Shown one piece after another: positions 93 through 61,356 of a stretch of 64,000 bases of DNA (positions within the stretch are counted from its first letter, which is position 1; each line of letters starts with the position of its first letter). This DNA is from Phytomonas francai. Its lineage: Eukaryota; Euglenozoa; Kinetoplastea; Trypanosomatida; Trypanosomatidae. The DNA lies in NCBI GenBank assembly GCA_001766655.1, contig MJCC01000016.1, forward strand, positions 243,478 to 307,477, read 5' to 3'. The position numbers and the translations under genes were made by a program. Under the pieces are notes generated by a model. The model was given only the letters and a program-made list of their open reading frames with translations. It had not been told where the DNA came from and made no database searches.

Positions 93-315
93 AACGCCCA
101 GCAACGTCAAAAAGAAGCTGAGGGGGACCGAAGAAATCAATCGATATCGAACGTTAATACAACTAACACTACGTGTTCCCTTTTTTTTCTTATCGCTTCG
201 CTATGGTTGGTAATAGTAATCGTACCGCCCTTTCCCTCTGGCCTTGATTAAAAAAAGAGGGAGGGGTGGGATCTCGATAATCGTACACTGTATACAATTC
301 TATGGAGGAAAAATA

Positions 316-347
<32 letters not shown>

Positions 348-2768: not shown

Positions 2769-5342
2769 TCACTCAGCTACAGCCTCAGACTCGAAATGCA
2801 AGACTACAGGGCTTCTCCCGTTATTATTATTATTAATATTGCCATTTACTGCTGATGAGGAGGGAGTCTCTCCGACTGATGCTGCGCCCGAAAAAGAGCC
2901 CCTCGCTTTTGCACTCCGCCTTCCCGTTCGAAATAGATATGGATGCTGACTAAGCTGAGAAACATCATACCGCTCACTCACATTAAACGCTAGACAATTC
3001 GTTATAAGTTCCCTCGCCTCATCACTGACCTTCGGGCTCTCCGGAAAGCGCAACGTGCGCGCGGATTCGATAATAAGCTTCTCCTGCCAGATCTTCCGCT
3101 GCGATTCACCCTCAGCGAAGGGGCGGCGACCGAAAAGCATTTGATAAAAAATCACCCCCACTGACCAGACGTCGACTTTGTTGCTAATGCGCGGTGTCGA
3201 CGAGGTATCAAAGCACTCCGGCGGAAGATACCAATAGGTGCCCGTCCCCTGCGAGGTGAGCTCAATACTCGGATTATCACTCGGCCCCTCCCGTGTTTCC
3301 GCGATAATTTTCGACAACCCAAAGTCGGTGATCTTCACCTCTAGCACGCCGGGATCCGCTGAATGTAATAAAATATTCGCCGGCTTTAAATCGTAGTGAA
3401 TCACTGGGCTTGGCAACCCCGCCAGGTACCGCAGCGCGGCAACCACCTGCAGTAAGATCAGCCGCGCGTCGGCTTCGCGCAGCTGTTGGTAGCGCTTCAG
3501 ATAGGTGTCCAAATCCATCCCCGCGCTATGCTCCATCACGGAGACAAACGCCGTATCATTTAAGGAGAACACATCGTAAAGCCGTGTAAGATGCGGGTGG
3601 TCCAAGACCTGCATGATCGCCAGCTCCCGCTCTGCCCGGCGGCGGTAATTCAGGCGCGTTGCCATCGGCCAATCGCGGTTGACGTGATGAATCTTGCACG
3701 CCACATAGCGCCCTTCCACCAGATCGAAAGCTCGCCAGACCTCGGAGAAGCCCCCTTTGCCGAGCAAATCCATCAGAATATAGCGATCCCTCTCGCCGAG
3801 CGCCGAGCGACCGACGTACTCGGAGGCGTCCTCGTCGTTAACCCGTCGGATCTCCTTCACAAAGGCTTTTTTCTCCTTCTCAAGTTCTGCCTGGCGCTGG
3901 CGAATTGTGCTGATCTTTGTGGTGAGCGCAGCGTGTTCGGCGCTGCGCAGCTGCAGTTCCTCCTGCGCTTCCATCAGCGTGTAGAAGCCGTCAGAGCCCG
4001 GCGTCGACTCCTCGCGGTCTCTTTCCTGTCGGAGGAGCTGCTTGACGGTGTGGTGGGCGGCTTTCTTGAGCCCCTCCACAGCCTCCCGTCGCCGCGTGAG
4101 CTCCTCAAGCTCGCGAATCAGCCCGCACATCACGGCGCCCTCTACCCACACCTGCCGGGAGCCGCCCTGCCAAGCCACGATATGGCCGAGTTCGAAGTGC
4201 CGTTGATGAAGCCGGCGGTGGGCTTCCTGCCGACCTCGCCCCGCAGCCCCCCGGAGTTCCTCCGCCAGCGCGCGCTGGAGGCGGCCCAGCTTGGCCTCGA
4301 GGGCCTCCTCACGGCGCTCCTCCACGGTGAGGTGGGTGCGCTGCTCCGCGATCTCTGCCGTCGCCCGGGCGAGCCTCTCCCGCAGCTCCTCAACCTCCCC
4401 CTCCCGCCGGGCGATCGCGGCCCGCAACCCCGCCGGGTCCCCAACGACGGCCACCGTCGGCTGCCTCGTCCGACGGACCTCGCCAGGCCCGGGGCCGCCG
4501 CCCACCCCAGCAGAATTCACAGGTGCTGTGGCCATTGTGCCAGGATTCACAGGGGCTGTGGCCATTGTGCCAGGATTCGCAGGTGCTGTGGCCATTGTGC
4601 CAGGATTCACAGGGGCTGTGACCATTGTGCCAGGATTCGCAGGGGCTGTGGCCATTGTGCCAGGATTCGCAGGGGCTGTGGCCATTGTGCCAGGATTCAC
4701 AGGGGCTGTGGCCATTGTGCCAGGATTCACAGGGGCTGTGGCCATTGTGCCAGGATTCGCAGGGGCTGTGGCCATTGTGCCAGGATTCACAGGGNCTGTG
4801 GCCATTGTGCCAGGATTCACAGGGGCTGTGGCCATTGTGCCAGGATTCGCAGGGGCTGTGGCCATTGTGCCAGGATTCACAGGGGCTGTGACCATTGTGC
4901 CAGGATTCACAGGGGCTGTGGCCATTGTGCCGCGATTTCTTTCCCCTCCTACGCTAGGAGGCTTCGGGCTCACGCCTTCGCCCCCCTCCTCCCTGTCGCT
5001 GGGATCCCCTTCGTGGGCACAAAAGCCGCCGCCGCCGCCAAATGGGAAGGAAAGGGAAGAGGGCGGGGGCAGCCGGGAACCGCTTTTGTGACCCGCTTCT
5101 TCGTCCCTTGCGGTGATCAGAACCTTACCTCGCGTAGCATCATCGACGTCAACAAAAGGCGGTATTGATTGTCCATCGTTAAGTGAAAAGGTGACAGAAT
5201 TGGAGCAGATTTCATTCTCAGTTTCATCGTTATTTCTCTCAAGTTCGTTGTCTTCCTGTTGTCTTTTTCGTTTTCTTTCTCTCGGAATTGGAAAGGAGGG
5301 CTCAGAAGGCTCTACTTTAGCGTGGTCACCTGCGTTCTCCAT
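2769..5342 (-). CDS. TLK: Tousled-like serine/threonine protein kinase with decapeptide repeats
   Basis: Tousled-like kinases phosphorylate the histone chaperone Asf1 and act in chromatin assembly in the nucleus. From the ATG at 5342 the protein has 857 residues. It has an acidic/basic N-terminus, a decapeptide array at about 136-275, coiled coil at about 300-500, and a kinase domain at about 520-800. The kinase has the glycine loop (LLGKGGFSEVW), the VACKIH lysine, a HYDLKPANILL catalytic loop and DFG. HYD in place of HRD is usual in this family. The frame extends upstream to an ATG at 5501, but a pyrimidine tract and AG (complement of about 5374-5405) lie inside that extension, so Met54 (MENAGDHAK) is the likelier start. 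The unknown base at 4795 makes one residue uncertain. A short tail after the kinase ends in ESEAVAE. Confidence 0.92.
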   Translation of the reverse strand: MENAGDHAKVEPSEPSFPIPRERKRKRQQEDNELERNNDETENEICSNSVTFSLNDGQSIPPFVDVDDATRGKVLITARDEEAGHKSGSRLPPPSSLSFPFGGGGGFCAHEGDPSDREEGGEGVSPKPPSVGGERNRGTMATAPVNPGTMVTAPVNPGTMATAPANPGTMATAPVNPGTMATXPVNPGTMATAPANPGTMATAPVNPGTMATAPVNPGTMATAPANPGTMATAPANPGTMVTAPVNPGTMATAPANPGTMATAPVNPGTMATAPVNSAGVGGGPGPGEVRRTRQPTVAVVGDPAGLRAAIARREGEVEELRERLARATAEIAEQRTHLTVEERREEALEAKLGRLQRALAEELRGAAGRGRQEAHRRLHQRHFELGHIVAWQGGSRQVWVEGAVMCGLIRELEELTRRREAVEGLKKAAHHTVKQLLRQERDREESTPGSDGFYTLMEAQEELQLRSAEHAALTTKISTIRQRQAELEKEKKAFVKEIRRVNDEDASEYVGRSALGERDRYILMDLLGKGGFSEVWRAFDLVEGRYVACKIHHVNRDWPMATRLNYRRRAERELAIMQVLDHPHLTRLYDVFSLNDTAFVSVMEHSAGMDLDTYLKRYQQLREADARLILLQVVAALRYLAGLPSPVIHYDLKPANILLHSADPGVLEVKITDFGLSKIIAETREGPSDNPSIELTSQGTGTYWYLPPECFDTSSTPRISNKVDVWSVGVIFYQMLFGRRPFAEGESQRKIWQEKLIIESARTLRFPESPKVSDEARELITNCLAFNVSERYDVSQLSQHPYLFRTGRRSAKARGSFSGAASVGETPSSSAVNGNINNNNNGRSPVVLHFESEAVAE
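4518..4937 (-). repeat. In-frame 30-bp minisatellite, 14 units, in the kinase gene
   Basis: Fourteen contiguous 30-nt units encode the decapeptide NPGTMATAPV or variants ending in A or with MVT. The first unit reads NRG. Units differ by only a few bases, which implies recent expansion or homogenisation. The ambiguous base at 4795 lies in the array, as expected where reads from different units or alleles disagree. The encoded segment is Pro/Thr/Ala-rich and probably disordered. Confidence 0.97.
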
Positions 5343-5644
5343 TAATCGATGTGCCCACACTTCTATAACTCTTTCAGGAAGAAGAGAATAAAAAAGAGCC
5401 AAAAGGGAAGCGAATCTAGCTCCCCTCTTATTAATATTTCCTTTGAAAGAAGATATATGAGTAGAAATGGAAAAAGATTGCATAAAATAGAGAAGAATCA
5501 TTGGAATAATAAATATTAATAACGATTATAGTCATAATTAGATGTACAACAAAAGAACGTTAAGATTTCGGAAGAAATTCACAAAGCGAGCAGCAAGACA
5601 TAAGAGCATTTTTCTTCATTTTTTCCATTTTATTACCTGAAAAA
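5343..5644. other. Spacer between the kinase and the HAPSTR1-like gene
   Basis: AT-rich DNA with the kinase's probable trans-splicing signal at its left end. Nothing else is recognisable. Confidence 0.5.
5374..5405 (-). promoter_or_regulatory. Predicted spliced-leader acceptor of the Tousled-like kinase
   Basis: In gene sense a pyrimidine-rich stretch (complement of about 5378-5405) is followed by the first AG near 5374. It lies upstream of the ATG at 5342 and downstream of the ATG at 5501, so it argues for the shorter protein. Confidence 0.5.
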
Positions 5645-18114: not shown

Positions 18115-18528
18115 TACTTGAAGAGAGTAAATGTAAATTTCAGAAGGTGAGAGACAAATCAAGCAAGCAAAGGAAAACGCCAAGAGGAATATTTCTCCAT
18201 CTAAACCGAAAATATCAAGCATTGCTGACAATAACCATCTAGCTCGAGAAGATACTCGAAGAAGAAATCCTACCGTCAAGAGCTGTTTCTCTTCAGGGAG
18301 GGGAGAAGGAGGAGGGCTGGAAAGCAATTACTATGCCCCTTTTAGGTTACACTGAACTCGCTTCGGGCCATTCGAGCACCGAGTAGCAACACGTCAACAC
18401 CCACCATGGAACCCACTTCCTCACACAGCGCGTCGGCCCAGCATCCGTCCGTCTCCCAGGCAGCGTGAAAAAGCGGCTAGTATGCGATGGAGGAACCAGA
18501 GGACTCCTCGCTGCGGTGCCGTTTGGAC
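18115..18528 (-). repeat. Second copy of the PPP4R3 gene end and 3' flank
   Basis: Positions 18320-18528 match 29332-29540 at a constant offset of 11012, with two mismatches seen by eye (18330 and 18522). In gene sense the copy includes the last 15 codons of PPP4R3 (KRHRSEESSGSSIAY and stop, stop at 18477) and the following 3' flank. From 18319 down to about 18115 the similarity to 29150-29331 continues but is clearly diverged, with small gaps. The match ends abruptly at 18528, inside what would be the PPP4R3 coding region. Confidence 0.92.
18291..18316 (-). promoter_or_regulatory. Predicted trans-splicing tract for acetyl-CoA carboxylase
   Basis: An uninterrupted 22-nt pyrimidine run in gene sense (complement of 18295-18316) is followed within a few bases by AG at 18292-18291. 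This is the strongest such signal upstream of the carboxylase ATG and would give a leader of about 345 nt. The tract is missing at the equivalent place beside PPP4R3. A weaker tract at about 17976-17996 is closer to the ATG but has no AG after it. Confidence 0.5.
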
Positions 18529-19270
18529 GGGGTACTCGCTTCTGCACTAAAAAGCATACCGCAGTAACGGCTCAGCCACGAAAGATGAAAGCAAACGAAG
18601 ATCGCTGAGGGAGCCCACGGCGGTAAACAGGAGCGGAACGGAAAGCTGTCAGGAACGGCGACCTGCTGAGCGGCACAAAGCTTCCCGAGCAAGGAGAATC
18701 TAGCAAATTCCGCATGTTGAGCCCGCTTCGATTCGAGGCGCCTCATCATTAGGGTGCGGCGAAATCGCCCAAACGCCGCTGCTGGTGCGCCAACACGACA
18801 CCGCTAACTCTCACAACCTTTGTGAACATGTTCCGAACGGGTGCATAGATCCATAAGCACGCATACCCTTCTTTCGCTATGGTTCGCGCTTTACACATTT
18901 TCAGAGCAAATGAATTAGAAAAAATTCCCATGTAAAGTACCCTTTCGCCGAGCCAAAGGAGAAAAAGAATCAATCAGGAACTTTCCCGGCATGCTAACTG
19001 CTCCTAACATGTGGAACCGAATAAACGTTTCTTAAATCGACCCTATGTTATTATTCGGAGTAAGCAGTTTGAGTGATACCGATAATAAGAGCCTGTGGCT
19101 CTGTCAGCTATCTAGTCGCCTCTCAATCTCCTTTTCGCCGCGGTATCAAGCGCCATTTATACTACCCTCACCATTGCTGCTCGCCGCTTACACTGTCCTC
19201 CAATGTTATCTTTTGAAATTTTAAGTATCTTATGCTTTATATATTATGCGGGGTGAATGTAGTACTCAGG

Positions 19271-19525
19271 CTATGCCACGTTAAAATCAGGGAAAACCTC
19301 TTCAAAGGTCTTCCCCATCTTTGTGTGCTTCTCAAAATGCTGTTCCAACTCCGGACGCCGTGCGGTGCGAGGGAAACCTTGGAGACAAATCTTACACTGC
19401 ACTGCATTTTTGCTCTGTTCGTGTTTTTCAAGATCCTTGCTGGTGTGTTTTGTTCCAGCACTTTGCTGCTTTTTCATTGCGCGTTCACGACGCTGGTTCG
19501 CTCGGCAACCGTTCCCTGATGGCAT
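19271..19525 (-). CDS. Small zinc-finger protein, ZNF706/At2g23090 (SERF-like) family
   Basis: An 84-residue protein from the ATG at 19525 (MPSGNGCRANQRRERAMKK) to TAG at 19271. It has the layout of the small eukaryotic family that includes human ZNF706 and plant At2g23090. The N-terminus is basic and Gln/Arg/Lys-rich like SERF/4F5 proteins. A C2H2 finger follows: CKIC, a 13-residue spacer region, then HFEKH, and a short tail with FPDF. The finger cysteines (CKIC) and histidines (HFEKH) are all present. Family members are small basic proteins with roles in protein aggregation or RNA/DNA contact that are poorly settled. The gene sits alone between dihydroxyacetone kinase and the carboxylase. 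Confidence 0.8.
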   Translation of the reverse strand: MPSGNGCRANQRRERAMKKQQSAGTKHTSKDLEKHEQSKNAVQCKICLQGFPRTARRPELEQHFEKHTKMGKTFEEVFPDFNVA

Positions 19526-20842
19526 ATCGTAATGCTTACTTCGTGGTAATTCTCGTGGCGTGCTAGGAAAATGGAAGTGCTGTTTAATAAGTTTTTAACG
19601 TGCGTGTATGACATCCTATTTTATCGTTGCAGATATCATAAAGGAGACCAGAGAAAGGGAAAAGGGATTATTTTAAGAAAAACACGTAAATAGACTGTGT
19701 GAGATATATACTTATCTTTGCTTTGGTGCTGAACGCGTCCTTCTTCTCCAGTCCACCTCACCCGCCAATTGACTGCAGGTGTGTGACGGTACTTCTCCTA
19801 TCCCAAATCTACAAACACAGGGACCAGAACATGTCGTCCCTCCCCCCGCCCTGAATGTAGCTCTCCAAGCTTTCAGGGTGGAGGCCATCGTTCGGTTCAA
19901 ACACCTGCCGAATTGTCTAATCCCAGTGTGGGAGTAGTGGCAATCATACGCTAAATAGACCCAACTGTGCCTGCTCAGAGATCCCGGACGCTAGTTAGGA
20001 TTCTCCTGGCGGTCCCTCCCCCTCCCTCCCTTTTCCGCTCAGGGTGCTAACAAGAAGGGAGAGAGGGAGCAGGGCATTTGACAGCCAGTCACGTCTTCTG
20101 CGTGGGCTCTACCCCGGATTTCACATCAACGCACCCTGAAGGAAATAGGGTGCTGCATTTCGAATCATTACCGAAGTAAGCGCATATAAAATGAAGCCTC
20201 TCTACATATATATGTGCAAAAAGGGAAAATAGTGACAGAGAGATGTGGGAAGGAAATACTAAAGAGCACTGTCATAATGATAGCGAGTGGCAGAACGTCC
20301 CATAGGGTGCATCAATAAAATTTTGAATGCATATGGCACAGACCGTACCAGTCCCTTTTACAATAGCATTATGCATTTTTTCCTGCTCGTTTTTTTTTTT
20401 TAAATGAAAGAAGTGTTTCTAAACCATTTTTTGATCTTGACATTTTTTTTGCGTGTTCAAAGAAAATAAACCTTCAGGTCTCCATTGTTTTTCCTGGGAA
20501 AAATATTTAAGCTGCGTTTGTCACAACTGCCTTATAAAATACATGCTACGTAAATAACACAACATTACGTTCAAACATTCCTCTTCGAATCCGAGAAAAT
20601 TTCGATAATTAGCACAAAAAGAGCCTCAACGCATTTGCAGTGAAAGAAGAGAAGATAACAACGAGGTAAGTAGTAGACAGGGAGGAAAAGGGGAACGTAT
20701 ACACCCTTTGCACAATAATAACGAAAATACTAGAGCTAAACGTTTCCATCTCAGGGAACTAACCTTCCTACTTTGCTTTATAAACATGCAGCGGATTGTC
20801 CTCACCACGGTCATTCAATACCGTTTGGTATCTGCTCTTTTG
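19526..20842. other. Spacer, no gene recognised
   Basis: About 1.3 kb between dihydroxyacetone kinase and the zinc-finger gene. A moderately GC-rich part (about 19700-20150) has short frames with no recognisable content. A T-run follows at 20392-20402. Confidence 0.5.
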
Positions 20843-22717
20843 TTAGATTCCGTCGTCAGGGTGTTTATATTTTCCCGCAATGGCCTCAATCCATAAAACA
20901 ACAAGCTCAGCTCCCGGGTCCTTCTTTCCAATCTCCTTTCCGCCAAGATATCGGCTCCGACCAAATTTAGCCGGAAGCTGCGCGGTGGCTGCCGCCGCTT
21001 GGGTTGCCACCCTCAAACACACCTCCAGGAGGTCCTTCAAGGTTCCAGCCTGCCTCACCTCCGGGCTCTCCCGAAGCGCTTCGAGCACATCGACCATGGT
21101 TCGATCGCCCTTCCGGGCGCCCCCCAGCTTCTGCACCTCCTCGCTGCCCCTCGCGATGGCCGCGCGGATGGCCGCGACGACGGCCTCGTCTCCGCCGTCG
21201 CCGGGGCGCCCTCGGGCGGCCCGCAGGGCCTCCTGCGCCCCCACCCCGGCGCCGATCAGCAGGGCGCCGTAGAGCGGGCCGGAGGTGCCCGCGCAGGCAT
21301 CCGCGACGGCCTTCGCGAGCAGCGTGAAGCTGCGCTCGACCCCCCGCTCGCAGGGGAGGTAGGGCAGCAGCCCCAGCGCCGCCGCCGCCGCGCGGTGCAC
21401 GCCACTGCCGAGGTCCCCGTCCCCCACCGCGGCGTCGAGCTCGTTGAGGTAGGACTGCACGGTGAGGAGGTGCTCGAAGACGTGCTTCAGCACGGCTCGT
21501 AGGGCCGACGCATCCCCGCAGGCAGCGGCCCTCCCCTCCCCCTCCTCCTCGTTCTCCCCTATTGCGAGCTGAAGAGCCGTGACCGGACCACCGGGCGCCG
21601 CCTTCGGCTCCAACGTGGGCTCGTGAAAGCCCATCAGCGGGTCCTGGAGCGCATCGCTGCACCGCACGAACGAGAGGTCCGCCGCATCCTCGATAGCGAG
21701 CACCGTGAGGGAGAAGCCGTGCATGTCGAGCGCGGTCATGTGCCGCCCGACGCTCACACCGGAAACGACAAACCCCTCCGAGGAAAGCTCGCGGAGGGCG
21801 TGGGCGGCGAGAAGATTCATCTCCATGTCGGTTGTCCCGCCCAAATTGTTCACCAGAAGGACGACCTTCGCACCCCGGAGCAGTGGGGTGATCCTCGCCG
21901 TCGTGAGTGGCGTAGACACGGCCGCCACACCGTCGGAAGCGTCATCCTTGCCTCTCCCCAACAAAATACTCATCATCTTCGCCACAAGGGCATGTGCGCC
22001 GTGAAAGGGGATCTGAACAAGACCCTTCTCACCATGGATCCCGAGCCCAATTTCAACACAATGAGGCGGTATTGTCGAAGATGGCGGTCCGCCAGGCAAC
22101 GCACAAGAGGAGAGGCTTGCGCCTATGGTGCGTAGGTTGCGCGAGATACGACACGCTAGGGTCTTTAGCTCCTCGAGGGTGGCACCCTTAGCGGCAGCGG
22201 CACCCAGGATCTTGTACAACAGACACGTTCCGGCCAACCCACGACGCTTGGATGTCTCGTCGGTCCCGAAGACAACATCGTCTGCGGCAAGCACAGAGTC
22301 CACGCGAATACCCTGAACCCTCGCCTGCTGTATCGCGAACTCGAAATTCAGTACGTCACCGGCGTAGTTTTTTATAATCACCAAAATCCCCGGTGGATCG
22401 TCGTTGCCGTTGCTTTCCTTTTGCCTCTTCGCGAGGTAGTTGATGGCAGCACTCACATGGGCGGTTGGTGGGGAGGCGAACACGCTTCCGCAGACCGCCG
22501 CGCTCAACCACCCACGAGCGACAAATCCGACGTGCGCGGGCTCGTGCCCGGAGCCGCCGCCGCAGATCAGCGCCACACGTTTCGGATTAACCTCCTTCGC
22601 GACGACAACATTTGAGTCGCTCAGACGCTGGCAGCGGGGATTCGTCATGCAAAACCCATCAATGGCCATTTGCACAACGTCATCGACATTATCAATAAAC
22701 TTGGAGATAACAGACAT
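20843..22717 (-). CDS. DAK: ATP-dependent dihydroxyacetone kinase, fused DhaK-DhaL
   Basis: Phosphorylates dihydroxyacetone (and possibly glyceraldehyde) to the triose phosphate using ATP, feeding glycolysis. The 624-residue length and domain order are those of the single-chain ATP-type enzyme. The DhaK domain spans about 1-340, with GGGSGHEP at 53-60, the KNYAGDVLNF segment at 116-125 and GLGIHGE containing the substrate-binding His228. The DhaL nucleotide domain spans about 405-600, with the Mg/ATP motif LDAAVGDGDLGSG (Asp428, Asp433, Asp435). The C-terminus HPDDGI is not a glycosomal PTS1. A pyrimidine-rich stretch followed by AG (complement of about 22771-22790) precedes the ATG. The DhaL part, about 20.95-21.6 kb, is markedly GC-rich. 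Confidence 0.95.
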   Translation of the reverse strand: MSVISKFIDNVDDVVQMAIDGFCMTNPRCQRLSDSNVVVAKEVNPKRVALICGGGSGHEPAHVGFVARGWLSAAVCGSVFASPPTAHVSAAINYLAKRQKESNGNDDPPGILVIIKNYAGDVLNFEFAIQQARVQGIRVDSVLAADDVVFGTDETSKRRGLAGTCLLYKILGAAAAKGATLEELKTLACRISRNLRTIGASLSSCALPGGPPSSTIPPHCVEIGLGIHGEKGLVQIPFHGAHALVAKMMSILLGRGKDDASDGVAAVSTPLTTARITPLLRGAKVVLLVNNLGGTTDMEMNLLAAHALRELSSEGFVVSGVSVGRHMTALDMHGFSLTVLAIEDAADLSFVRCSDALQDPLMGFHEPTLEPKAAPGGPVTALQLAIGENEEEGEGRAAACGDASALRAVLKHVFEHLLTVQSYLNELDAAVGDGDLGSGVHRAAAAALGLLPYLPCERGVERSFTLLAKAVADACAGTSGPLYGALLIGAGVGAQEALRAARGRPGDGGDEAVVAAIRAAIARGSEEVQKLGGARKGDRTMVDVLEALRESPEVRQAGTLKDLLEVCLRVATQAAAATAQLPAKFGRSRYLGGKEIGKKDPGAELVVLWIEAIAGKYKHPDDGI

Positions 22718-25171
22718 ATTTTCCCTTTTTCAACTTGGTTTTTACTATACTGAGAGTATGTGAGATCCTTTGGCAGGAGAGGGGAATGCGCACATAAATG
22801 GTTTTGCTTCATTTGGTGGACCGCATGGAATCAGAAGCCACATAACCAATCCCGTTCGGCCATGGGGGCTACACGTAAAACCACATTATAACCATACACT
22901 AAGATATGTATGCAAAGGAGGAAAGTGACTAATCTGAATACAATCAAAGCGTTGCTTCACCATTCTCTATGCACCTGTCTCACTTCCGCTTATTTTCCTC
23001 GTTCTTTCACCTCTCCTTCGGGTGGTTGAAAAGGTCGAGAAAATAAGCTTTGACATTATTCCGGCATAATGAAGAGTATTTCTAATTTCAAATTCTATTA
23101 TCGGGGGAAAAAAATCACCATCAAATATCGTCAAAACTAGACACTCTTCACTTTGATGGTAGATTGATTTAGCAGCAACGGAAATTTACACCACCCAAAT
23201 GACTAAAAACATGGCACACAAAATATAGAAGGGTCACAATCAGACAGGAAGAAAGAGAATCACAGAAGGCATTCTGAGATCCACACGAAAGGAGCTCCGT
23301 AATGCAGACTACACACGCAGGTCAGCTTTACACACTACATAAGCTTCTAGCAGGAAGATAAAAAATAAAAAGAACGGGCCAGGAAACGCTGCATATAACT
23401 CTCAAAGGGGAGGAGGATTAAGTCACAGGGTAGGCCTCACCTTGTTTGCAAGGATGAAAAAGGCCCTTGCATCTTCGCTTCCTTACCCAGTTCAACCCTC
23501 ACCCACATATCAAAGGTGGAAACGGAAAGGAGAGAACCCCAGTGGCAAAACAAGTAGACAACTGATAAAGATAAAAGCATAAGAAAAGAGGTCTTTATAT
23601 CAATTAGTCGACACAGCCCAAAGATGTAGCCCACGATCGGGCGACTGCTCTTAATACACTCCCAGCCGAGCGTCTTCCTAATGCCGCATTGAGCCCCTTA
23701 ACGAATGCTAGAGGCGCTTTCAAGGGCAGCTGCCTTTCGATGTCTGGAGGTTCCTCGACACAGGCAACATAAGCTCGTGGAACCCGACCTCTGTGGACCC
23801 ATTTCAGCACGCACTTCCTACTCCTGTCGTAGCTAACAGTTGCCCCGTCGCGGCCGTACAAAGGTCCTAGTTATATTACGCTTGCATGCCCCACAACACG
23901 GATAGGGTCCATGCAAGCTAGCACAGCCGTCAGCCTATGTGACTAATAAGAGGAGAAAGGGAAGAAGATTGATCGCGTAGTGTGAGAAAGCTTCATTACC
24001 ATTACACACGTTCTCTCACCGGGAAATGCAACCTGAAACAGCTGCCCGTCTCACACATCGTAAAGAGATATAGTCATTATGATAAAGCAAAACAAGAATT
24101 TTAGAGTAATTAAAATCATTTTCCTTCAAAACATAGTATTTACTTATATCCGCATAATCAAATGGGAATTATCATTTTAATAAATATTTTCTACTGAGAA
24201 AAGATACCGAACAAACTCGAGTCGCCATTAGAACTCAATTTATCAATATTATAAATATTCTATTTACTATCTTTTCCTTTTTGATGATTGCATATTTGCA
24301 TGTATGGACATGATATATATATATATAGATATAGATCAGCCTTTGTAATTTGAGAATTAAAATTAAATTAATTAACCCAAAGAAAAGAAGATTCAAAAGA
24401 GACAATTTCTGAATTCGGTATAAAAATTCGTAAATCATGAAGATAAAAATAATGGAAAAATATTAAGCCATTAACTATTAATTTAAATACACTAATGTAT
24501 TTAAATTTTTGTTTAAAGCTTTAAAATAATAAGAAACTATTGTAAAACAAAAACACGGGATGGTGGTTAGAGAAATACTAACCAAAAAAAAGACATCGAA
24601 AAATGACAACATCAACGAAGGAGTGTATGTGGAAATATTAAAAATGTTCTTTCTCACTTTTATATCCGTTCAAACAGAAATAGTTGGGATTAAATTAACA
24701 CAGCGTACAAAATATATCCATTTAGTAGATTAAAGTTAGCAAACCAGTTGTTGGTAAGCAATTTTTTTCAAGAGATTTGGATTATTGATATAAATGATGC
24801 ATTATAATAAAAAAACAAGAAAAAGTTTTCATAGAGATATTCCCGTCATACTACCTCCCAGCACACCCAAAGACGAGGCTTCATTATTTTCCTAGATTTA
24901 TTTCTTAAAATATTAAAATGAAAAGGAGAAACACGTGGCACAAGTTGCCAGACACACACACATACACACACAGATACAAGTACGCATACAAATAAAAAAA
25001 ATAAAATATATTATCTACCATAAATATATACATGTAGATACTAGCGAACAAATAAAAAAGAAAAACTAAGCACGTAGGCGGCGTGTCTCCATCCCAGGAC
25101 TCACCTTCCCCCACCCGTGTTACAGCCTGTTGCACCGTTCAAGTCAAGGCGCGGTCGTGCACCCCACGCTG
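22718..25171. other. 2.45-kb gene-poor spacer
   Basis: The longest gap in the window. A GC-neutral part (about 22.8-24.0 kb) includes a minus-strand open frame at 23604-23861 with no ATG, and a 9-bp inverted repeat at 23880-23918. The rest (24.05-25.05 kb) is very AT-rich, with TA and CA microsatellites. No gene is recognised. Confidence 0.5.
23880..23918. repeat. Perfect 9-bp inverted repeat
   Basis: GCTTGCATG at 23880-23888 is the reverse complement of CATGCAAGC at 23910-23918, with a 21-nt loop between. It could fold as a stem-loop but has no other mark of a known RNA. Confidence 0.5.
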
Positions 25172-27127
25172 CTACTTTGCATTGCCGGAAGCCCTCAGCG
25201 GGCCTTTGCCTTCGCCCTCAGAGAACGGTTCCGTACGCATCACACACTCCGACTCCACCTCATCCTTGATGACACGTCCATTGATGTCAAGTTTATCGCA
25301 AATGCGAGCGGAAGGAATCAGAAGGAAGATAAAAGGTATACTGATTGACGGCATGATGCCATGTGAAACGAGAATTAACATTGGCATATTGCTGTAATCG
25401 CAGGGGACTTTTGTCTTCACAGGCCAAAAGAACTCCATAAAGATTGCACCGAGTGTGGTGCTGCCGCTTCTTCCAAGGCTGGAGAAGCCGGACATCAATG
25501 CATACACCAAGCTTTCCGAGCCACGAGGACACAGCCGAGACAGCAGCACGAACATTGGCATTCCCTGCAGTTTTATTAAAATTTGAACGACGACACTGTG
25601 GCCGAAAATGTATATAAAATGGTCAGGTATGCCGATTTTAGTGTTCCAGCGCTTCACAATCGTGATGTCAATCAAAGCGGCACACATTATACCAATTGTG
25701 GGCAATATAAATGCAAAGCGGTAATTAAGCCTTGGGAAGAAGTAAGAGAAGCACACAACTCCAATGAGGGCACCAACATTGGAGAAAACCGAGAAAAAGC
25801 CGTTATAGAAGGTGTAGGAGAAATGAGGCCCGTCGGGGAGGCACTTTTCATCAGCCATGTAAAACGTGTTTAGTGCACCCGGTAATAGGACAAAAGTCAG
25901 CGATTGCAGGTACCCGAACACGTTAACCTTAGCAATCATCAGCGGCAGTGCCCAGAAGGATGCTCCGCAACACACTACCGACACACCGACACAAGCGATA
26001 AGCAAGGCCAACTTTTCAGCAAAGATGTTGCAGACGATCATAACTACTACAGCACCTGTCAAGATCACACCGTACACAAACGCCCTCCAGTTGTCCAGGA
26101 AAACGTCCTTGTTAAAATCAAAAAGGCCGCAGCAACAGGTGATAGTCTCAGGCGGCAGCAGCTCATTCATTTCCTCCACGATGTTGTTCACGAGGTGCTG
26201 TTGTGGCGCCACCTCATCGCCGTTCTCGATTGTCTTCAACTCCTTGTCATTTGGGGTAACCAGAGCGTCCAGCTCCCTCTCCTTGAGTCCTTCCAGATAT
26301 CTGTGCCTCGTATCTTCGGCGTGCTCTTCCTGGTTCGTCCTCTCACCGTACCAATTGAAAATGAAAACGACAATCGTCAGGAACTGTAGAGCCATTGAAA
26401 TGAAAATTCCAACTTGGGGAATTTTTGCATCCGCGAGAGGCCCGACAAGGAAGGAGGACATAATGTTGCCAAGTAAGACAAACCACCAAACCCAGCTAAC
26501 CAGCGCAGGACCCTGCACAGGGTATTTGATTATTAGACGACTGTAGAAGCCCTCAGAGAGAATGTCCACGTTGGCTTTGAAGTAGGAGGTAAGAAAGATG
26601 AAGACACCAGCAATGTCGGCGGAAGACTGTTTCGCGGGTAGCATAGCGAAAGCAAAAGCACACGCAGCACCCGCAACACAAGAAATGGCCATGTACCACC
26701 GCTTTGTATAGCCAAGTAAGGCAAAGCTGTCACACACCATGGCGGTGAGGGGCTTAGCGGACCACCCCAGTGTATATAAAGAGGACAGGCGTTGGTAATG
26801 CTTTCCCCCGATACCATAATAGTTTACCAACATAGCGTAGGTAAGCCCTTGTATCAATTCATCGGCAATACCTCTGCAGAACAGGTGAACCACGGCAAGA
26901 CCGGTGATGCACTTTGGGCCGTATCCCTCACAAGCGGGTCCAAAGATGGGGATACGGCGCGTCCACGGATACCGTTCAAAAAGACGTTTGGCGCTTAGAT
27001 GCACGGGGCGTTCCTCAACCTCTTCTGAAGCGGTGAAGACGCGGGTACGAGACTCACTGCAGTCATTCAAGACGGCAGCGTCGCCAGCTGGAGGCACCGT
27101 GTTGGTGAACTCAGTAGGGTGAGACAT
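25172..27127 (-). CDS. BT1: Folate/biopterin transporter, BT1/FBT family
   Basis: Membrane transporter of the kinetoplastid and plant BT1 family, taking up pterins or folates that these parasites cannot make. The start is the ATG at 27127 (MSHPTEFTNTV), giving 651 residues; the frame extends three codons to a TTG. About twelve hydrophobic segments are seen, split by a central hydrophilic loop (about 280-340). The family segment GIADELIQGLTYAMLVNYYG follows the first membrane segment, with LYTLGWSAKPLTAMVCDSF next. Which substrate it carries cannot be told from sequence. The upstream trans-splicing signal is one of the best in the window. Confidence 0.92.
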   Translation of the reverse strand: MSHPTEFTNTVPPAGDAAVLNDCSESRTRVFTASEEVEERPVHLSAKRLFERYPWTRRIPIFGPACEGYGPKCITGLAVVHLFCRGIADELIQGLTYAMLVNYYGIGGKHYQRLSSLYTLGWSAKPLTAMVCDSFALLGYTKRWYMAISCVAGAACAFAFAMLPAKQSSADIAGVFIFLTSYFKANVDILSEGFYSRLIIKYPVQGPALVSWVWWFVLLGNIMSSFLVGPLADAKIPQVGIFISMALQFLTIVVFIFNWYGERTNQEEHAEDTRHRYLEGLKERELDALVTPNDKELKTIENGDEVAPQQHLVNNIVEEMNELLPPETITCCCGLFDFNKDVFLDNWRAFVYGVILTGAVVVMIVCNIFAEKLALLIACVGVSVVCCGASFWALPLMIAKVNVFGYLQSLTFVLLPGALNTFYMADEKCLPDGPHFSYTFYNGFFSVFSNVGALIGVVCFSYFFPRLNYRFAFILPTIGIMCAALIDITIVKRWNTKIGIPDHFIYIFGHSVVVQILIKLQGMPMFVLLSRLCPRGSESLVYALMSGFSSLGRSGSTTLGAIFMEFFWPVKTKVPCDYSNMPMLILVSHGIMPSISIPFIFLLIPSARICDKLDINGRVIKDEVESECVMRTEPFSEGEGKGPLRASGNAK

Positions 27128-29488
27128 GTTATGCAAACCTTATGTTGTCGGTACGGATATTCCTAATTTGTTGCGGAAATCCTATTTCTTAAAGGCTTAG
27201 GTGAGTTAACTGCAATCAAGCAGAGAAGCAAACAAAAGGAGAGAAGTCAAAACAACAATAGTTGCCCTATACGAAGGAGGGATGCGTTGCCTGTGGGGTC
27301 CAAAAGCGAAGGCAGCATACGTTTCCAGCATAGTTGGGTTCAGTTAAAATGAAAAAGGTTATCAGTGTCATATACCTCGAACAGCAGGTGGTCGTGCGGC
27401 GGGGCCTCCCTCTCCCTCGCCAGCTGCAAACACAGCTTCGCAAGGGGGGGAGGGGGACGCGCACCTCGGCTTGCCGTCCTCAGAGATCCGCAGAGCTAGG
27501 CCACGGCCCCCGCCTACCGCAGGCACACACACACGCAGGTACGTGCGCCGCTACGCTCGCACCCCTGCCTTCCGACAACAGCGGCTCCACGGCGAGCCCA
27601 GACACCCCATTTTGCGCGCAGGCACCGCTGCGCTGCTCTTCCATTCCAACGGAGCCTCCTCGGTGGGAGGGTAGCGCAGACGCGGCCACACACAGCTGCG
27701 TGCTCGTCGCTTGGTTGCTGCTCCCACATGGTGCGGATCTGGCTTTTCTGGGAGCTTTATTCCATCACCTGTTTGATACTTGCACGAAATATGACTGATT
27801 TCTAGGTCCACTCATTCTTGCCAATGCTGCGTTAAAAGGTTCGCATTATGTGACGCCTTTGCCCATGCAATGCGAACCCATGGTAATAACATATCCTGAC
27901 CGCAAGTTGGCGATTTTGCCAAGGCAGACCAGCAATCTCATGTGAGGGAATAACCCAGATTCTTGATAGTCTGGTTACGCAAATTCTCCATCGACGACAT
28001 CGAGTATGATCCAATTAGACTATCTCAAACCCCTCTCACATAACATTGGAGGAAATGTGGTGGGCAAATCAAAAAGCTACGTCGTTGGGGCTAGCTGACG
28101 TCACTGATATAAACATTGGCGTGGGGCACAGCACCAGTGGCGGCTAAGATCACGAGCCCAAGAACTTCTTCACCAGCTGGGCCCATAGCGATACCCGTCG
28201 AAGGCTGCTCAGCAACTCGTTGGCATACTTGATTCCTATCCAGATTGGTGCTGCTGAAGTTCCAATTGATGCGTAAATAGGGGAAAGGGCGACGTCAATT
28301 CATTTTGCACAGCAGGGCAAGGAACATTGGCGAACCACACCACACGCTAATGATGGTCACAGGACTTTATCAGCATTCTCCCCATCCACAGGTATACATA
28401 GAAGCAATACTCGACCCTTTTCATGTGCGTGGTCGCGACACCGTGCTAAGACTCTGGTTGAAATGTAGCAAAGAGCTGTTTGGCATAGACCGGCTTCCTT
28501 TTGAAGGCAACCCGGGCCTAAGGGGTGTGATTCTCCTTTATCTGGTTTGAATAATCCCCCTGAGGGGGTGTAGAAATTGGGTACCACTCCCGTGATCGAC
28601 CTGGGTAAGTTGTTGTTAAAATTGCAGCACTCTGTCGGCCCAGCAATAAAAACGTCCCAGCGGTAACTCCCTACACCTATCCTAGCCGTTCCATTCCCCT
28701 CCCCCATAACAGCACCGCCTGTATACTCCGCATGTGAGCGCTATCAGATCACTCTGTGGTGCTCCGTACTGCATCAGGATGGTATGTGAGTAATAATGTA
28801 GCGCATTTACCCGCACACCCGCAGCAGAAACTACAAAAGCCTTTTGTTGTCGGATTAGACATGCGTATGCTAACGATCTGAAGGCGCCCGAACTGCACCA
28901 AGCACCGGGCGCCACGATCATCGTTGTCGCCATTGCCATGCAGCGGAAGAGGACTCAAGCATCAGAGAGGTCACTCTAGACAAAGGCTCAAAGAGGTGGA
29001 ATACGGGCTCCTTCATTGCCGCAATGGTAACCGCTGAGACGTTAGATATAGGTTCTCTCTGATGGCTTTCCTATAATGCTTCAATCGCGTCCGTAGCAGA
29101 ATGTTATGAGGCGGAAACCGGGCTAGAAATTATGGGGGAAAAAATGATACTTGAAGAGGGAAATATAAGTTAGCGAAAGCGAAAGACAAATCAGAAAAGC
29201 GAAAGGAAATATTAAGGCAGTTATATTACTTTCCAAAAGAGGAATCATTATCTATTGTTAAAACCAACAACCCAGCCGACGAGGATACTTGAAGAAGTGA
29301 CCCCACTGTTAACCTTTTTAATAGAGATGTAGAAAGCAATTCCTATGCCCCTTTTAGGTTACACTGAACTCGCTTCGGGCCATTCGAGCACCGAGTAGCA
29401 ACACGTCAACACCCACCATGGAACCCACTTCCTCACACAGCGCGTCGGCCCAGCATCCGTCCGTCTCCCAGGCAGCGTGAAAAAGCGG
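27128..29488. other. 2.36-kb spacer with degenerate, partly coding-like sequence
   Basis: Between PPP4R3 and the transporter. Composition is close to that of coding DNA from about 27.3 to 29.1 kb, yet frames are short and broken. On the minus strand about 28094-28300 reads like protein in two different frames, each closed by stops, so it may be the remains of a gene or retroposon. No family is recognised. 29150-29488 is the PPP4R3 3' flank, duplicated at 18 kb. Confidence 0.45.
27210..27246 (-). promoter_or_regulatory. Predicted spliced-leader acceptor of the pteridine transporter
   Basis: A long pyrimidine-rich stretch in gene sense (complement of about 27214-27246) ends in TTGCAG, with AG at 27211-27210. 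This gives a leader of about 82 nt to the ATG at 27127. Confidence 0.65.
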
Positions 29489-29540
29489 CTAGTATGCGAT
29501 GGAGGAACCAGAGGACTCCTCGCTGCGGTGCCGCTTGGAC
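29150..29540 (-). repeat. PPP4R3 gene end and 3' flank, source copy of the duplication
   Basis: 29332-29540 is almost identical to 18320-18528, and 29150-29331 is related but diverged. Here the segment is continuous with a full PPP4R3 gene, so this is taken as the parent copy. Confidence 0.9.
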
Positions 29541-32317
29541 TGGAAGCTTTCCTCCTCGTTTTCCATCCATTCATCACCCTCCACTTCGTCATTTTCATTG
29601 TTTCTAGGATGCTTCTTCAAAACCTTGCCTAGCATCTTTTCAGGTTCCTCTGTCCTTTCCTTCTCTTCTGAAGATCCTGAAGCAGCGTACTCTTCTGGCT
29701 CTTCATTTTCCTGCGAGTGGCTTCGCCTGTCGCTACCGTTTTTCCCAGTTTCGTTGTTGGTATAGTCATCATCCATGCTAAACTCTGACAGACTGTCTTC
29801 CCCATGAAGGCCAAATAGCAATTGGTGAGGTGGGTCACCACTACTACAGTTCTTGGGCGAGTGTGAACGAGACCGTGGGGTTGGTATCTCGAGTGCAAAA
29901 TCCACGGCGAGGGCATCGTACTCCGAAAGGCCCGTGGCTGGCAGGCGCTCAATGGTGCTGGCAATACTAGAAGTTTCCGTATCGGCCTGCTGAGCCTCCT
30001 CTGGGGTCTCTTTCAGCACATGCTTCAGCTTTTCAGCAATGAAAGGCGACTTCACCGAGAGTTGATCTCCATATGTCTTCAGCAAGGCGAAGGCTGTTTC
30101 TTGGTACAATTGAGTGTTTTCAGGCTCAGTGGACTGTCTAAAAAAAGCCGCATCGGAGGCAGAAGAGCCTATTCCCGAATGAACACCGCTCTCCAACAAT
30201 GAAACCGAAAAAGATGATTTTGGAGCCATCAATTCGTTACTCTGCCGCTTTCCCATGTGTACAAGGGTGCACAAGTCAAAAAAAAGACGCCCCAGGGAAG
30301 ACGAAAGCACGTTATTCCTTTGTGCACATTCGAGAAAGAGTTTCATGCACACATCGACAAGGCCATCCTTTCCGGTAAGCAGGTGAAAGAGGCGAACACA
30401 GCCAGTATTGAGAAGGGCTGCTAGGAAGGACACAGCAGATGACTGCAGGTTCATGCACCATCGAGAAGAACGCCCGAGAAGTGCCGCGATCCCAGGGATA
30501 AGCTGAGAGAGCACCAATAACTCCGTAAAACTAGCACCATGTCGTGCCTCCATCTCCTCAGCCACAACCTGGAGCACGCGCAGGTGGTAGAGCGCGCGCG
30601 TTTCCTCTTGCTTTGGCGGGATAGACCGCGAGGTGGCGTTGGCCCACTTCGGCAGCAGCTGCGCGAGGCTCGTGGCGACCAAGAAGAGGGGCGGCTTTTC
30701 CACGCCGCTCCCTTCGACCCAAAAGCGGACAACGTCGCCCCGCTGCGCCCTCGCCGCCGGGGTGATGGGGATCAACAGGCTCCGCAGCCCCACCGCCGCC
30801 CCCAGGATGGCGTCGTAAACGGCCTGCAGGGTGGCAACCCCACGCACGACGGTGATGGACTTCATTAAGAGGCTCAACGTGCTCCACTTGGGGTTGGTGG
30901 CGGACTCCGTCAGGAGGTTCTCGCGAGAGCTGCCTAGGATCTGGACGCAGTGGTTTATGGTCTCGCATGTGGCTCGAATAGCCGACTCGGCCGCCGCGGC
31001 TTCACCGCTGTCGTCCCGAGCAGGAGCCGTCGCCGCGGCGCTCCCGGGATCTCGCACCTCGTAGGACTTCAATGCGTAATTGAGAAGCACATTGGCGAAA
31101 GTGAAAAACCCACCCTGAACGAAGAGAGCGTACAACTCCTCCTTTGCGTCTAGTGTAATCATCGAGTTCTTGATAGTCTTCGACGTGTCAAACACAAAGT
31201 CCGCTAATGGGTATAAGAATTCGCTCGTTCCAGCAGAAACAGCCTCACGAAATGCCCTAGGAAGCAGGTCTGGGCTGCGACAGACGTCCTCCATCAACGT
31301 GTATTTGAAGCGGAGTAGGAAGGAGTTGAGAAGCGACGTTGACATCGCGTCGCCCTCATCTAGGCTAAGTGGAACTAAATCCTTGAGGTAGCTTGTCGCG
31401 AAGATGATGTGCACACGAGACAGGATGCTTTCAGGGAGTTGACAGGGGTTTTTAAAAGTCGCACGTCGCTCCTCGAAGCTGATGAATCCACTTGCCTTGT
31501 CTTTTCGACCAATGGCGTACTGCACAATATCAATGCAGTCCTCGATAACATCATTATCAACAAATTGGCCTATGATTTTGCCCTCTGAGTTATAGGGCGT
31601 CTTAAGTAATGCCAATACAATCTGTCCAATGTACTCCATTGATTTGGTGTCCTGGGACTTTTGGGATTGTTTGAAAAGCTCCACAAGTTCTTTAATATAT
31701 GTATCGTGGCCCCGTACGTAGATTCCAAAACGTTGGGTATTCTTGCAAGCTGCATCAAAGATAGTTTCGAGGCAGGATGGTTGCACATCCCACTTATAAG
31801 ACACGATGTGCTCATCTTGCAGTGCGTTCGCTAGGCGTTGGCGCTCGGCATGCTGGTATGCTTTGATTTCATCCATGATCTTATTGCATCCGGCTCTAGA
31901 ATTGAAGCTGCAGGCCACTTCCCGCGCCAAGTGCGGGTCCGACCACACCAAAATCGAGGGCTCCTGCACAATGTAAACATCCTCTATTGTGATAGGTGTT
32001 GTGATCAGTACCTTCGAGGGGTCATCAATGCCCACCATGGTGAGTCGTGCAATGCTGCGGCTGCCTTTCTGCGGAGCTGTTGTCGTATCTGCCTTGCCAA
32101 CTTTTCCACCGTGTGCCCTGTTCCCACTAGCAGAGTAGCTTATAAGATTTGTGACATCTGCGGGCACGAATTGGATACTGACTGAAACCACACCAATACC
32201 TACCTCACTCCACCCACTATCTTCCTCTAATGCAATGAAGAGTTTGGCTTTAGTGAGAGGTTCTTCTTCTATGGCACCATTGGTGTCTTCTATGACGGGA
32301 TCTGAATAATGTTCCAT
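29489..32317 (-). CDS. PPP4R3: Protein phosphatase 4 regulatory subunit 3 (PPP4R3/SMEK/Falafel)
   Basis: A regulatory subunit that brings substrates to the PP4 catalytic subunit, mostly in the nucleus. The 942-residue protein has the family order. It begins with a PH/EVH1-like fold (about 20-155), ending with the SMEK segment ILVWSDPHLAREVACSF and an AGC motif. The SMK-1 domain follows (about 180-400, with SILSRVHIIFATSYLKDLVP), then a long helical repeat region. The tail (about 800-942) is acidic and Ser/Glu-rich. The last 15 codons and the 3' flank recur near 18.5 kb. The segment at about 30.55-31.05 kb is GC-rich compared with the rest. Confidence 0.88.
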   Translation of the reverse strand: MEHYSDPVIEDTNGAIEEEPLTKAKLFIALEEDSGWSEVGIGVVSVSIQFVPADVTNLISYSASGNRAHGGKVGKADTTTAPQKGSRSIARLTMVGIDDPSKVLITTPITIEDVYIVQEPSILVWSDPHLAREVACSFNSRAGCNKIMDEIKAYQHAERQRLANALQDEHIVSYKWDVQPSCLETIFDAACKNTQRFGIYVRGHDTYIKELVELFKQSQKSQDTKSMEYIGQIVLALLKTPYNSEGKIIGQFVDNDVIEDCIDIVQYAIGRKDKASGFISFEERRATFKNPCQLPESILSRVHIIFATSYLKDLVPLSLDEGDAMSTSLLNSFLLRFKYTLMEDVCRSPDLLPRAFREAVSAGTSEFLYPLADFVFDTSKTIKNSMITLDAKEELYALFVQGGFFTFANVLLNYALKSYEVRDPGSAAATAPARDDSGEAAAAESAIRATCETINHCVQILGSSRENLLTESATNPKWSTLSLLMKSITVVRGVATLQAVYDAILGAAVGLRSLLIPITPAARAQRGDVVRFWVEGSGVEKPPLFLVATSLAQLLPKWANATSRSIPPKQEETRALYHLRVLQVVAEEMEARHGASFTELLVLSQLIPGIAALLGRSSRWCMNLQSSAVSFLAALLNTGCVRLFHLLTGKDGLVDVCMKLFLECAQRNNVLSSSLGRLFFDLCTLVHMGKRQSNELMAPKSSFSVSLLESGVHSGIGSSASDAAFFRQSTEPENTQLYQETAFALLKTYGDQLSVKSPFIAEKLKHVLKETPEEAQQADTETSSIASTIERLPATGLSEYDALAVDFALEIPTPRSRSHSPKNCSSGDPPHQLLFGLHGEDSLSEFSMDDDYTNNETGKNGSDRRSHSQENEEPEEYAASGSSEEKERTEEPEKMLGKVLKKHPRNNENDEVEGDEWMENEEESFQSKRHRSEESSGSSIAY

Positions 32318-49101: not shown

Positions 49102-49757
49102 TTTACACACGTGTATATTCTAACACGAAGTAGTAAGTAGCAATTGATATCGTGTGATTAACGCGACAAAGAGTCGAAGCGCCCTAGAATATCCTCTAGA
49201 GGATGATTAAATGGTGGAGCAGGCGGCAACGTCACGTCGTATCCGCAACTCAGGCCATTCAAATGCTCATTTATTGAGAAAACAGAGCTATGATGCTCTT
49301 TAAGTCTCCAGTACCGACATGTAGTCAAAAAAGGCCCATTCTTTGACTGGGAAAAATTCCTCCCTATGGATCTCGCGCTTAAATACGGGAAAGGCACAAA
49401 TATAGGTAATAGGGCTTAGCACCCGTTGAAAAGGTTAGGCGAAAAGGGTTCTTTAAATTGGCTAAAGAGGAAGGATAGCAATGACCGTAGTACTCTCAGT
49501 AATTGAATAGAGTGCACGGAATCAAGCTACTCACATAATATATGTCATGTTTTTTTTTTGTACATGATACATCACCACACGGGCAAATGGTAGAGCTAAA
49601 CATAGTAGACATTGGTCGTTTGCTCAAGGCAACAATATCAATCAAACAGAGATAATGATGAAGGAAAGTATTTTAAAATCTATGGGGTGAAAGAAACATT
49701 CTTTTGAATAGAAGCACATTGAAGATTAATATTATGGTGCCCATGTAAACAACGAGT

Positions 49758-49760
<3 letters not shown>

Positions 49761-49798
<38 letters not shown>
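49761..49798. repeat. TA dinucleotide microsatellite
   Basis: About 19 uninterrupted TA units in the 3' flank of the ZIP transporter. A similar run lies at about 61232-61264. Confidence 0.9.
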
Positions 49799-49802
<4 letters not shown>

Positions 49803-49847
49803 ATGCAATCTGTACTGATTTATAAGAAAGCTGTACGATTCGGCCAA

Positions 49848-61231: not shown

Positions 61232-61264
<33 letters not shown>
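61232..61264. repeat. TA dinucleotide microsatellite
   Basis: About 16 TA units in the spacer between the methyltransferase and the coiled-coil gene. Confidence 0.9.
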
Positions 61265-61266
<2 letters not shown>

Positions 61267-61356
61267 CTATAGATTTTAGTTTCCACGTTTCACTTTAAAT
61301 ATGCTAAGATTAAGTGGGTGACATTAGCTCTTTGCTACGTCGCCAATAATATCTTT

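What the first reader, a model, noticed from the sequence alone, without database searches (positions are those of the whole stretch)
18320..18528. Near-perfect copy of the PPP4R3 gene end lies 11 kb away, upstream of acetyl-CoA carboxylase
209 bp at 18320-18528 and 29332-29540 differ at only two positions by eye. They carry the last 15 PPP4R3 codons, the stop and the 3' flank. Directly adjacent on one side the match continues for about 200 bp but is clearly diverged, with gaps. A sharp step from near-identity to divergence inside one duplication suggests that only this block has been homogenised recently (gene conversion) or is under selection. In kinetoplastids 3' flanks carry expression-control elements, so the copy could give the zinc-finger gene transcript (19271-19525) the same control as PPP4R3.
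Basis: partly seen in the sequence, partly recalled or inferred. Interest (0 to 1): 0.75.

Follow-up and report, generated by a model that had tools for sequence, protein, structure and literature searches.

The report
Duplicated gene end flanks inserted genes

Summary
18320-18528 and 29332-29540 match at 207 of 209 bases. Next to them on one side lies a real but diverged match (111 identical, 72 mismatched, 23 gapped columns); the other side has none. A genome-wide DNA search found no third copy.
The setting is, by protein similarity, a Phytomonas. Here three genes (BT1-type transporter, dihydroxyacetone kinase, small zinc protein) lie between them. The zinc gene is on chromosome 10 by its tag in Leishmania major and was found once in this genome. 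The repeat sits at both edges of this block.
Best reading: the block was inserted into the PPP4R3-ACC intergenic region, leaving a ~0.4-kb flanking duplication; the 209-bp half next to the PPP4R3 coding end was later homogenised, probably with PPP4R3 as donor. One insertion event with template switching is the main rival. Shared regulation of the zinc gene is possible but unsupported. A neat rearrangement footprint made of known kinds of event.

The parts
18320..18528 (-). ACC-side copy of the near-identical block (PPP4R3 last 16 codons, stop and 157 bp of 3' flank; not part of a PPP4R3 gene here)
   Evidence: 207/209 identical to 29332-29540; two places found in the genome
29332..29540 (-). 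PPP4R3-side copy of the block, at the true end of the PPP4R3 gene; the ancestral place and likely donor
   Evidence: The last 15 residues match Phytomonas EM1 PPP4R3 at 14; the KR of this tail is invariant in the 11 proteins aligned
18115..18319 (-). Diverged half of the flanking duplication, ACC side; pyrimidine-rich, ends at CTTCAAG, a candidate splice-acceptor region; carries an extra pyrimidine tract absent from the other copy
   Evidence: 121/181 columns identical; 111 match, 72 mismatch, 23 gap columns; motif GATTTGTCTYTCRCYTTC found at these two places only in the genome
29148..29331 (-). Diverged half of the flanking duplication, PPP4R3/BT1 side
18529..29147 (-). Three-gene block lying between PPP4R3 and ACC (inferred insertion; boundaries approximate)
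   Evidence: PPP4R3 and ACC have consecutive tags in Porcisia (JKF63_04005/04004); zinc gene is LMJF_10_0450 in L. major
29489..32317 (-). PPP4R3 (protein phosphatase 4 regulatory subunit 3), 942 aa
   Evidence: Pfam PF04802; 79% identical to an EM1 protein over 74% of the query
25172..27127 (-). BT1-family (folate/biopterin transporter type) gene, 651 aa
   Evidence: Pfam PF03092, E 3e-139; best-scoring paralogue in this genome 51% identical, on contig C3
20843..22717 (-). Dihydroxyacetone kinase (Dak1 + Dak2 domains), 624 aa; one match in the genome
19271..19525 (-). Small SERF-like / zf-met2 zinc-binding protein, 84 aa; one match in the genome
11415..17945 (-). Acetyl-CoA carboxylase, 2176 aa
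   Evidence: Pfam domains; homologues
18477..18749 (-). Chimeric ORF, 90 aa from an ATG: the block edge read in frame into the copied PPP4R3 tail; probably accidental
   Evidence: Stop-to-stop frame 18477-18803, 108 codons

Best explanation
A block carrying a BT1 transporter, a dihydroxyacetone kinase and a small zinc protein was inserted into the PPP4R3-ACC intergenic region of an ancestor of this Phytomonas. The insertion duplicated about 0.4 kb of target: the PPP4R3 coding end, its 3' flank and a pyrimidine-rich region ending in a candidate trans-splice acceptor. One copy stayed behind PPP4R3 and the other in front of ACC, so genes on both sides of the block kept an intergenic processing region. 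The two copies then drifted apart (about 60-67% identity remains in one half, depending on the alignment), and later the 209-bp half that ends at the edge of homology was homogenised, most likely by gene conversion with PPP4R3 as donor. Shown: the two-level repeat, its position at both edges of the block, no third copy found, the gene adjacency by locus tags in Porcisia, and the PPP4R3 tail shared with EM1. Inferred: the insertion event and its direction, the size of the duplication, gene conversion as the cause of near-identity, and the processing role.
For: Two-level identity, 207/209 against 111 match/72 mismatch/23 gap columns. The diverged half is real homology: 0 of 21,525 control pairs reach its score, and its motif is found at these two places only in the genome. 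Of five named species for which both proteins are listed with a contig, four share the contig length (P. hertigi, L. pyrrhocoris 412,459, T. theileri 245,094, T. melophagium 575,356); T. cruzi, listed as clusters of 15 and 20 sequences, does not (one search lists 120 of 4184 hits). L. major LmjF.31.2980, 105.8 kDa, stands by number next to ACC LmjF.31.2970 (PMC11894013 and PMC5380837, passages), near the 106.3 kDa of Porcisia PPP4R3. The zinc gene is LMJF_10_0450 in L. major and JKF63_07976 on another contig in Porcisia; L. major folate/biopterin transporters include LmjF.10.0380 and 0390. In this genome contig C3 holds BT1 genes near isocitrate dehydrogenase, Sec23/24 and a kinase, and the zinc gene is not there. 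Donor: tail shared with EM1 at 14 of 15 residues.
Against: No DNA of a second Phytomonas, nor of any relative's PPP4R3-ACC region, could be examined, so neither the age of the insertion nor the conversion step is dated. A single-event rival explains more simply why the identical block ends at the edge of homology. Same-contig evidence is inferred from equal contig lengths; strict adjacency rests on one species' locus tags, with L. major numbering in support. Genome DNA searches with either diverged flank did not recover the other. No donor scar was found, and the place of the kinase gene in relatives is unknown. Reads were not available.
Confidence: 0.6

Rival explanations
1. One recent event made everything: a break inside the PPP4R3 coding end, copying of 209 bp from the sister, a template switch at a pre-existing similar stretch into a molecule carrying the three genes, then end joining to the ACC-side end. 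No separate gene conversion.
For: The identical block ends within 3 bp of the end of all homology at 18529-18531, and by eye that junction has almost no microhomology, as a joined break end would. EM1 has PPP4R3 and the zinc gene on contigs of different length (91,457 and 53,951), which fits a lineage-specific insertion.
Against: It needs the flank of the incoming block to resemble the ACC upstream region beforehand. No third relative of that flank was found: one self match in a genome DNA search at E up to 10 (insensitive, since it missed the known partner too), the two copies only in 174 kb by sequence model, and the exact motif at two places only.
Confidence: 0.2
2. A short stray copy of the PPP4R3 end landed upstream of ACC by ectopic repair, unrelated to the neighbouring gene-order change.
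For: Small ectopic copies need no insertion; only the 209 bp are recent.
Against: The copies sit at the two edges of the block between genes adjacent in a relative, and the older diverged match lies beside them in the same order.
Confidence: 0.09
3. Assembly or haplotype artefact: the second copy or the join is not real.
For: Flanking direct repeats are a usual form of mis-join (general knowledge); reads could not be inspected.
Against: Two base differences plus a partner flank with 33-39% of columns differing are not what a duplicated identical contig end gives; the kinase and zinc genes were found at no other place in the assembly.
Confidence: 0.07
4. Strong selection keeps the block identical in both places (shared RNA element or control element).
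For: 3' flanks carry control elements in kinetoplastids (established knowledge; review PMC6597758 seen only in search listings with the start of its abstract).
Against: Third codon positions and 157 bp of flank would all have to be constrained; no Rfam match in the block; folding z = 0.01.
Confidence: 0.04

Closest known systems
Gene conversion (concerted evolution) in trypanosomatid tandem arrays, e.g. Leishmania beta-tubulin and T. brucei arrays (PMC1533823, PMC1855330: search listing and start of abstract; PMC4413820: passages)
   Same: Near-identity of one stretch next to diverged sequence within a duplication, in polycistronic gene clusters
   Different: Here the repeat is an intergenic piece with a coding tail, the copies are 11 kb apart, and the genes on the two sides are unrelated
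Relocated genes at synteny breaks in trypanosomatids (five to ten breaks between Phytomonas EM1 and HART1; PMC3916237, passages)
   Same: Genes found out of their expected place
   Different: That paper says breaks tend to fall at boundaries of transcription units; here the seven genes with a Pfam match between 2769 and 32317 lie on one strand, so the block seems to sit inside a unit
Target-site duplication of mobile elements
   Same: Direct repeat at both edges of an insertion
   Different: About 0.4 kb long, and none of the three genes of the block is a mobile-element gene

Membership tests
Insertion with flanking (target-site) duplication | Direct repeats at both edges of the inserted DNA | tested here: met
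   18115-18528 and 29148-29540
Insertion with flanking (target-site) duplication | Flanking genes adjacent in a relative | tested here: met
   Porcisia consecutive tags JKF63_04004/04005; gene order only, no relative's DNA was read
Insertion with flanking (target-site) duplication | Empty site seen in DNA of a close relative (another Phytomonas) | not testable with these tools
   EM1 and Hart1 appear only as proteins
Insertion with flanking (target-site) duplication | Both copies diverged evenly along their length if nothing happened later | tested here: not met
   Two-level identity; needs later homogenisation or a template switch
Ectopic gene conversion tract | Near-identical tract inside a longer diverged duplication | tested here: met
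   207/209 next to 111 match/72 mismatch; one tract edge coincides with the end of homology, so diverged sequence borders it on one side only
Ectopic gene conversion tract | Phylogeny of the tract conflicts with that of its flanks | not testable with these tools
   No relative's DNA for this region was available; two copies found
Mobile element | Transposase, integrase or reverse transcriptase in the insert | tested here: not met
   Pfam finds BT1, Dak1/Dak2 and SERF/zf-met2 in the three genes; other ORFs in the block (173 aa or less) were not scanned
Structured non-coding RNA | Known family or unusually stable fold | tested here: not met

The most novel reading that the evidence does not exclude
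Gene blocks enter a kinetoplastid transcription unit by duplicating a whole intergenic processing cassette (3' end region plus splice-acceptor region), so that the genes upstream and downstream of the block both keep working RNA-processing signals; ongoing conversion between the two cassettes then keeps the 3' end of the upstream gene and its copy alike, giving the inserted zinc gene the 3' end region of PPP4R3.
Probability: 0.13. Interest if true: 0.6.

Novelty: new member of a known kind. Interest (0 to 1): 0.4.

Why it matters
Gene order in trypanosomatids is unusually stable, and how a gene block enters a polycistronic unit without breaking the RNA processing of its neighbours is rarely visible. 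Here both edges are still readable, and a near-identical stretch next to a diverged one gives a case where insertion and conversion can be separated once a close relative is read. It also warns that a shared 3' flank need not mean shared regulation.

Tried and rejected
Considered and rejected: a repeat family (two places; neighbouring stretches matched only themselves); structured RNA (one search gave two weak SCARNA7 matches at 24.7-25.0 kb, E above 4, far below the gathering score); a nearby tRNA (none in the window; run with the bacterial code); chance pyrimidine-tract similarity of the diverged half. Against the homology: a genome DNA search with the ACC-side flank did not recover the PPP4R3-side flank at E up to 10, nor the reverse. 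A gp63 family search (PF01457), used as a synteny marker, gave three places on contig C32 and did not help to find a donor site. T. brucei gene order was sought in PMC2212663 (passages) and by locus tags without success. A search for a trypanosomatid insertion of this form (at least four of six terms) gave two unrelated papers; a thin basis, and I make no claim that it is absent from print. The place of the dihydroxyacetone kinase gene in relatives was not established (search listing only). EM1 and HART1 ACC were not among the 120 listed of 4184 hits, and HART1 PPP4R3 was not found, so adjacency in other Phytomonas is open.

Full report
WHAT IS THERE. A self-comparison of the window finds 18320-18531 and 29332-29543 at 98.6% over 212 bp without gaps. 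Base by base the first 209 bp differ at two positions, 18330 (A/C) and 18522 (T/C); a third difference at 18529 is the edge. On the minus strand, the coding strand here, the block holds the last 16 complete codons of PPP4R3, its stop (29489-29491) and 157 bp of 3' flank. The difference at 18522 falls at a third codon position (AAG in PPP4R3, AAA in the copy). A DNA search of the whole assembly holding the window (17.4 Mb, 37 contigs; window = C7:243478-307477) gives two places only; the tool calls such counts lower bounds.

THE STEP IS REAL. On the ACC-proximal side a second, diverged match runs from 18319 to about 18115 and from 29331 to about 29148. MAFFT gives 111 identical, 72 mismatched and 23 gapped columns there, against 207 identical and 2 mismatched in the block (Fisher p = 1.6e-25 on substitutions). 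A local alignment gives 121 of 181 identical columns and a score of 317. As a control I compared all pairs of 220-nt tiles from the 700-nt upstream flanks of 42 ORFs (ACC's included) in the window and in 110 kb of contigs C3 and C32: 0 of 21,525 pairs reached 317; the best, 275, is a TA repeat. Against the two flanks themselves, the best other tile scored 184. The motif GATTTGTCTYTCRCYTTC, shared by the two flanks, was found at these two places only in the genome. A sequence-only model of the two flanks finds only these two in 174 kb. Against this, plain DNA searches of the genome with either flank returned only itself at E up to 10, so the homology is too weak for that search and rests on collinearity and the controls. 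Beyond 18531/29543 no homology was seen.

WHAT LIES BETWEEN THE COPIES. The species is a Phytomonas or very near it: PPP4R3 is 79% identical to a Phytomonas EM1 protein over 74% of its length, and the zinc protein 87% and 85% to EM1 and Hart1. Between the copies lie a BT1-family transporter, a dihydroxyacetone kinase and an 84-aa SERF/zf-met2 protein. In Porcisia hertigi, ACC and PPP4R3 bear consecutive locus tags, JKF63_04004 and JKF63_04005, on contigs of the same length. Of five named species for which both proteins are listed with a contig, four share the contig length; T. cruzi does not, but its entries are clusters of 15 and 20 sequences. Of six unnamed 'lgn' PPP4R3 proteins, one (contig 32,306) shares a contig length with a listed ACC; the other five contigs are 3-9 kb, which leaves little or no room for both genes (one search listed 120 of 4184 hits). 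In L. major, LmjF.31.2980 is a 105.8-kDa protein called 'probable Importin', next by number to ACC LmjF.31.2970 (PMC11894013 and PMC5380837, passages); Porcisia and Leptomonas PPP4R3 are 106.3 and 106.6 kDa. That this is PPP4R3 is my inference. The zinc protein is LMJF_10_0450 in L. major and JKF63_07976 on another contig in Porcisia. Folate/biopterin transporters of L. major include LmjF.10.0380 and 0390. In the present genome the other BT1 matches lie on C3:512-528 kb, the best 51% identical, in a stretch that also carries isocitrate dehydrogenase, a Sec23/24 protein and a protein kinase; I recall, without a call, that L. major isocitrate dehydrogenase is on chromosome 10. The zinc and kinase genes were found only in the window. 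So at least the zinc gene, and probably the block, is out of its ancestral place, and the repeat lies at its two edges.

WHICH COPY IS ORIGINAL. The tail KRHRSEESSGSSIAY of PPP4R3 matches EM1 at 14 of 15 residues, and its KR is invariant in the 11 trypanosomatid-type proteins aligned. The PPP4R3 side is therefore the ancestral place and, if conversion occurred, the likely donor.

HOW IT PROBABLY AROSE. Model A (preferred, 0.6): insertion of the block into the PPP4R3-ACC intergenic region with a duplication of about 0.4 kb, drift of both copies, and later homogenisation of the 209-bp half up to the end of homology. Model B (0.2): one recent repair event that copied 209 bp and switched template at the diverged flank. 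B explains why identity ends within 3 bp of the edge of homology; A explains why the diverged half exists at all. A relative's DNA would decide, and none was available: the tool states that this genome has no relatives held, and Phytomonas EM1 and Hart1 appeared only as proteins. EM1 has PPP4R3 and the zinc gene on contigs of different length (91,457 and 53,951), which hints that EM1 lacks the insertion but could be a contig break.

FUNCTION. The diverged halves are pyrimidine-rich and end at CTTCAAG, as a trans-splice acceptor region would; the ACC copy has an extra pyrimidine tract next to the block. This fits, but does not show, that each copy serves as a processing region: downstream of PPP4R3 in one place, upstream of ACC in the other. 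The block has no match to a known RNA family and its 157-nt flank no unusual fold. Whether the zinc mRNA ends in the copied block is open.

VERDICT. Observation confirmed; conversion reading plausible; the larger finding is a readable insertion footprint that seems to lie inside a transcription unit. Known kinds of event in an instructive arrangement.

Noticed in passing
window 4511-4937: Tandem repeat with 60-bp period inside the protein-kinase ORF (2769-5501, minus); the window's only N lies in it, at 4795.
   Followed up: no
window 18477-18749 (-): A 90-aa ORF reads from the edge of the inserted block in frame into the copied PPP4R3 tail; a possible accidental chimeric peptide.
   Followed up: partly
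P0001 (Phytomonas EM1): The deposited EM1 PPP4R3 starts at a residue internal to the window's protein (694 against 942 aa); the EM1 gene model may be cut short.
   Followed up: no
window 21000-21499 and 24250-24749: The dihydroxyacetone kinase gene reaches 74% GC while the spacer between it and BT1 falls to 25% GC.
   Followed up: no
window 27130-29147: Two kilobases between BT1 and the repeat with no ATG-started ORF over 149 aa, longer than the 1.1-1.3 kb average spacer reported for EM1 and HART1 (PMC3916237, passage); possibly remains of something lost.
   Followed up: partly
window 314-347, 539-575, 49757-49808 and 61232-61271: Short self-complementary simple repeats that match one another.
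   Followed up: no
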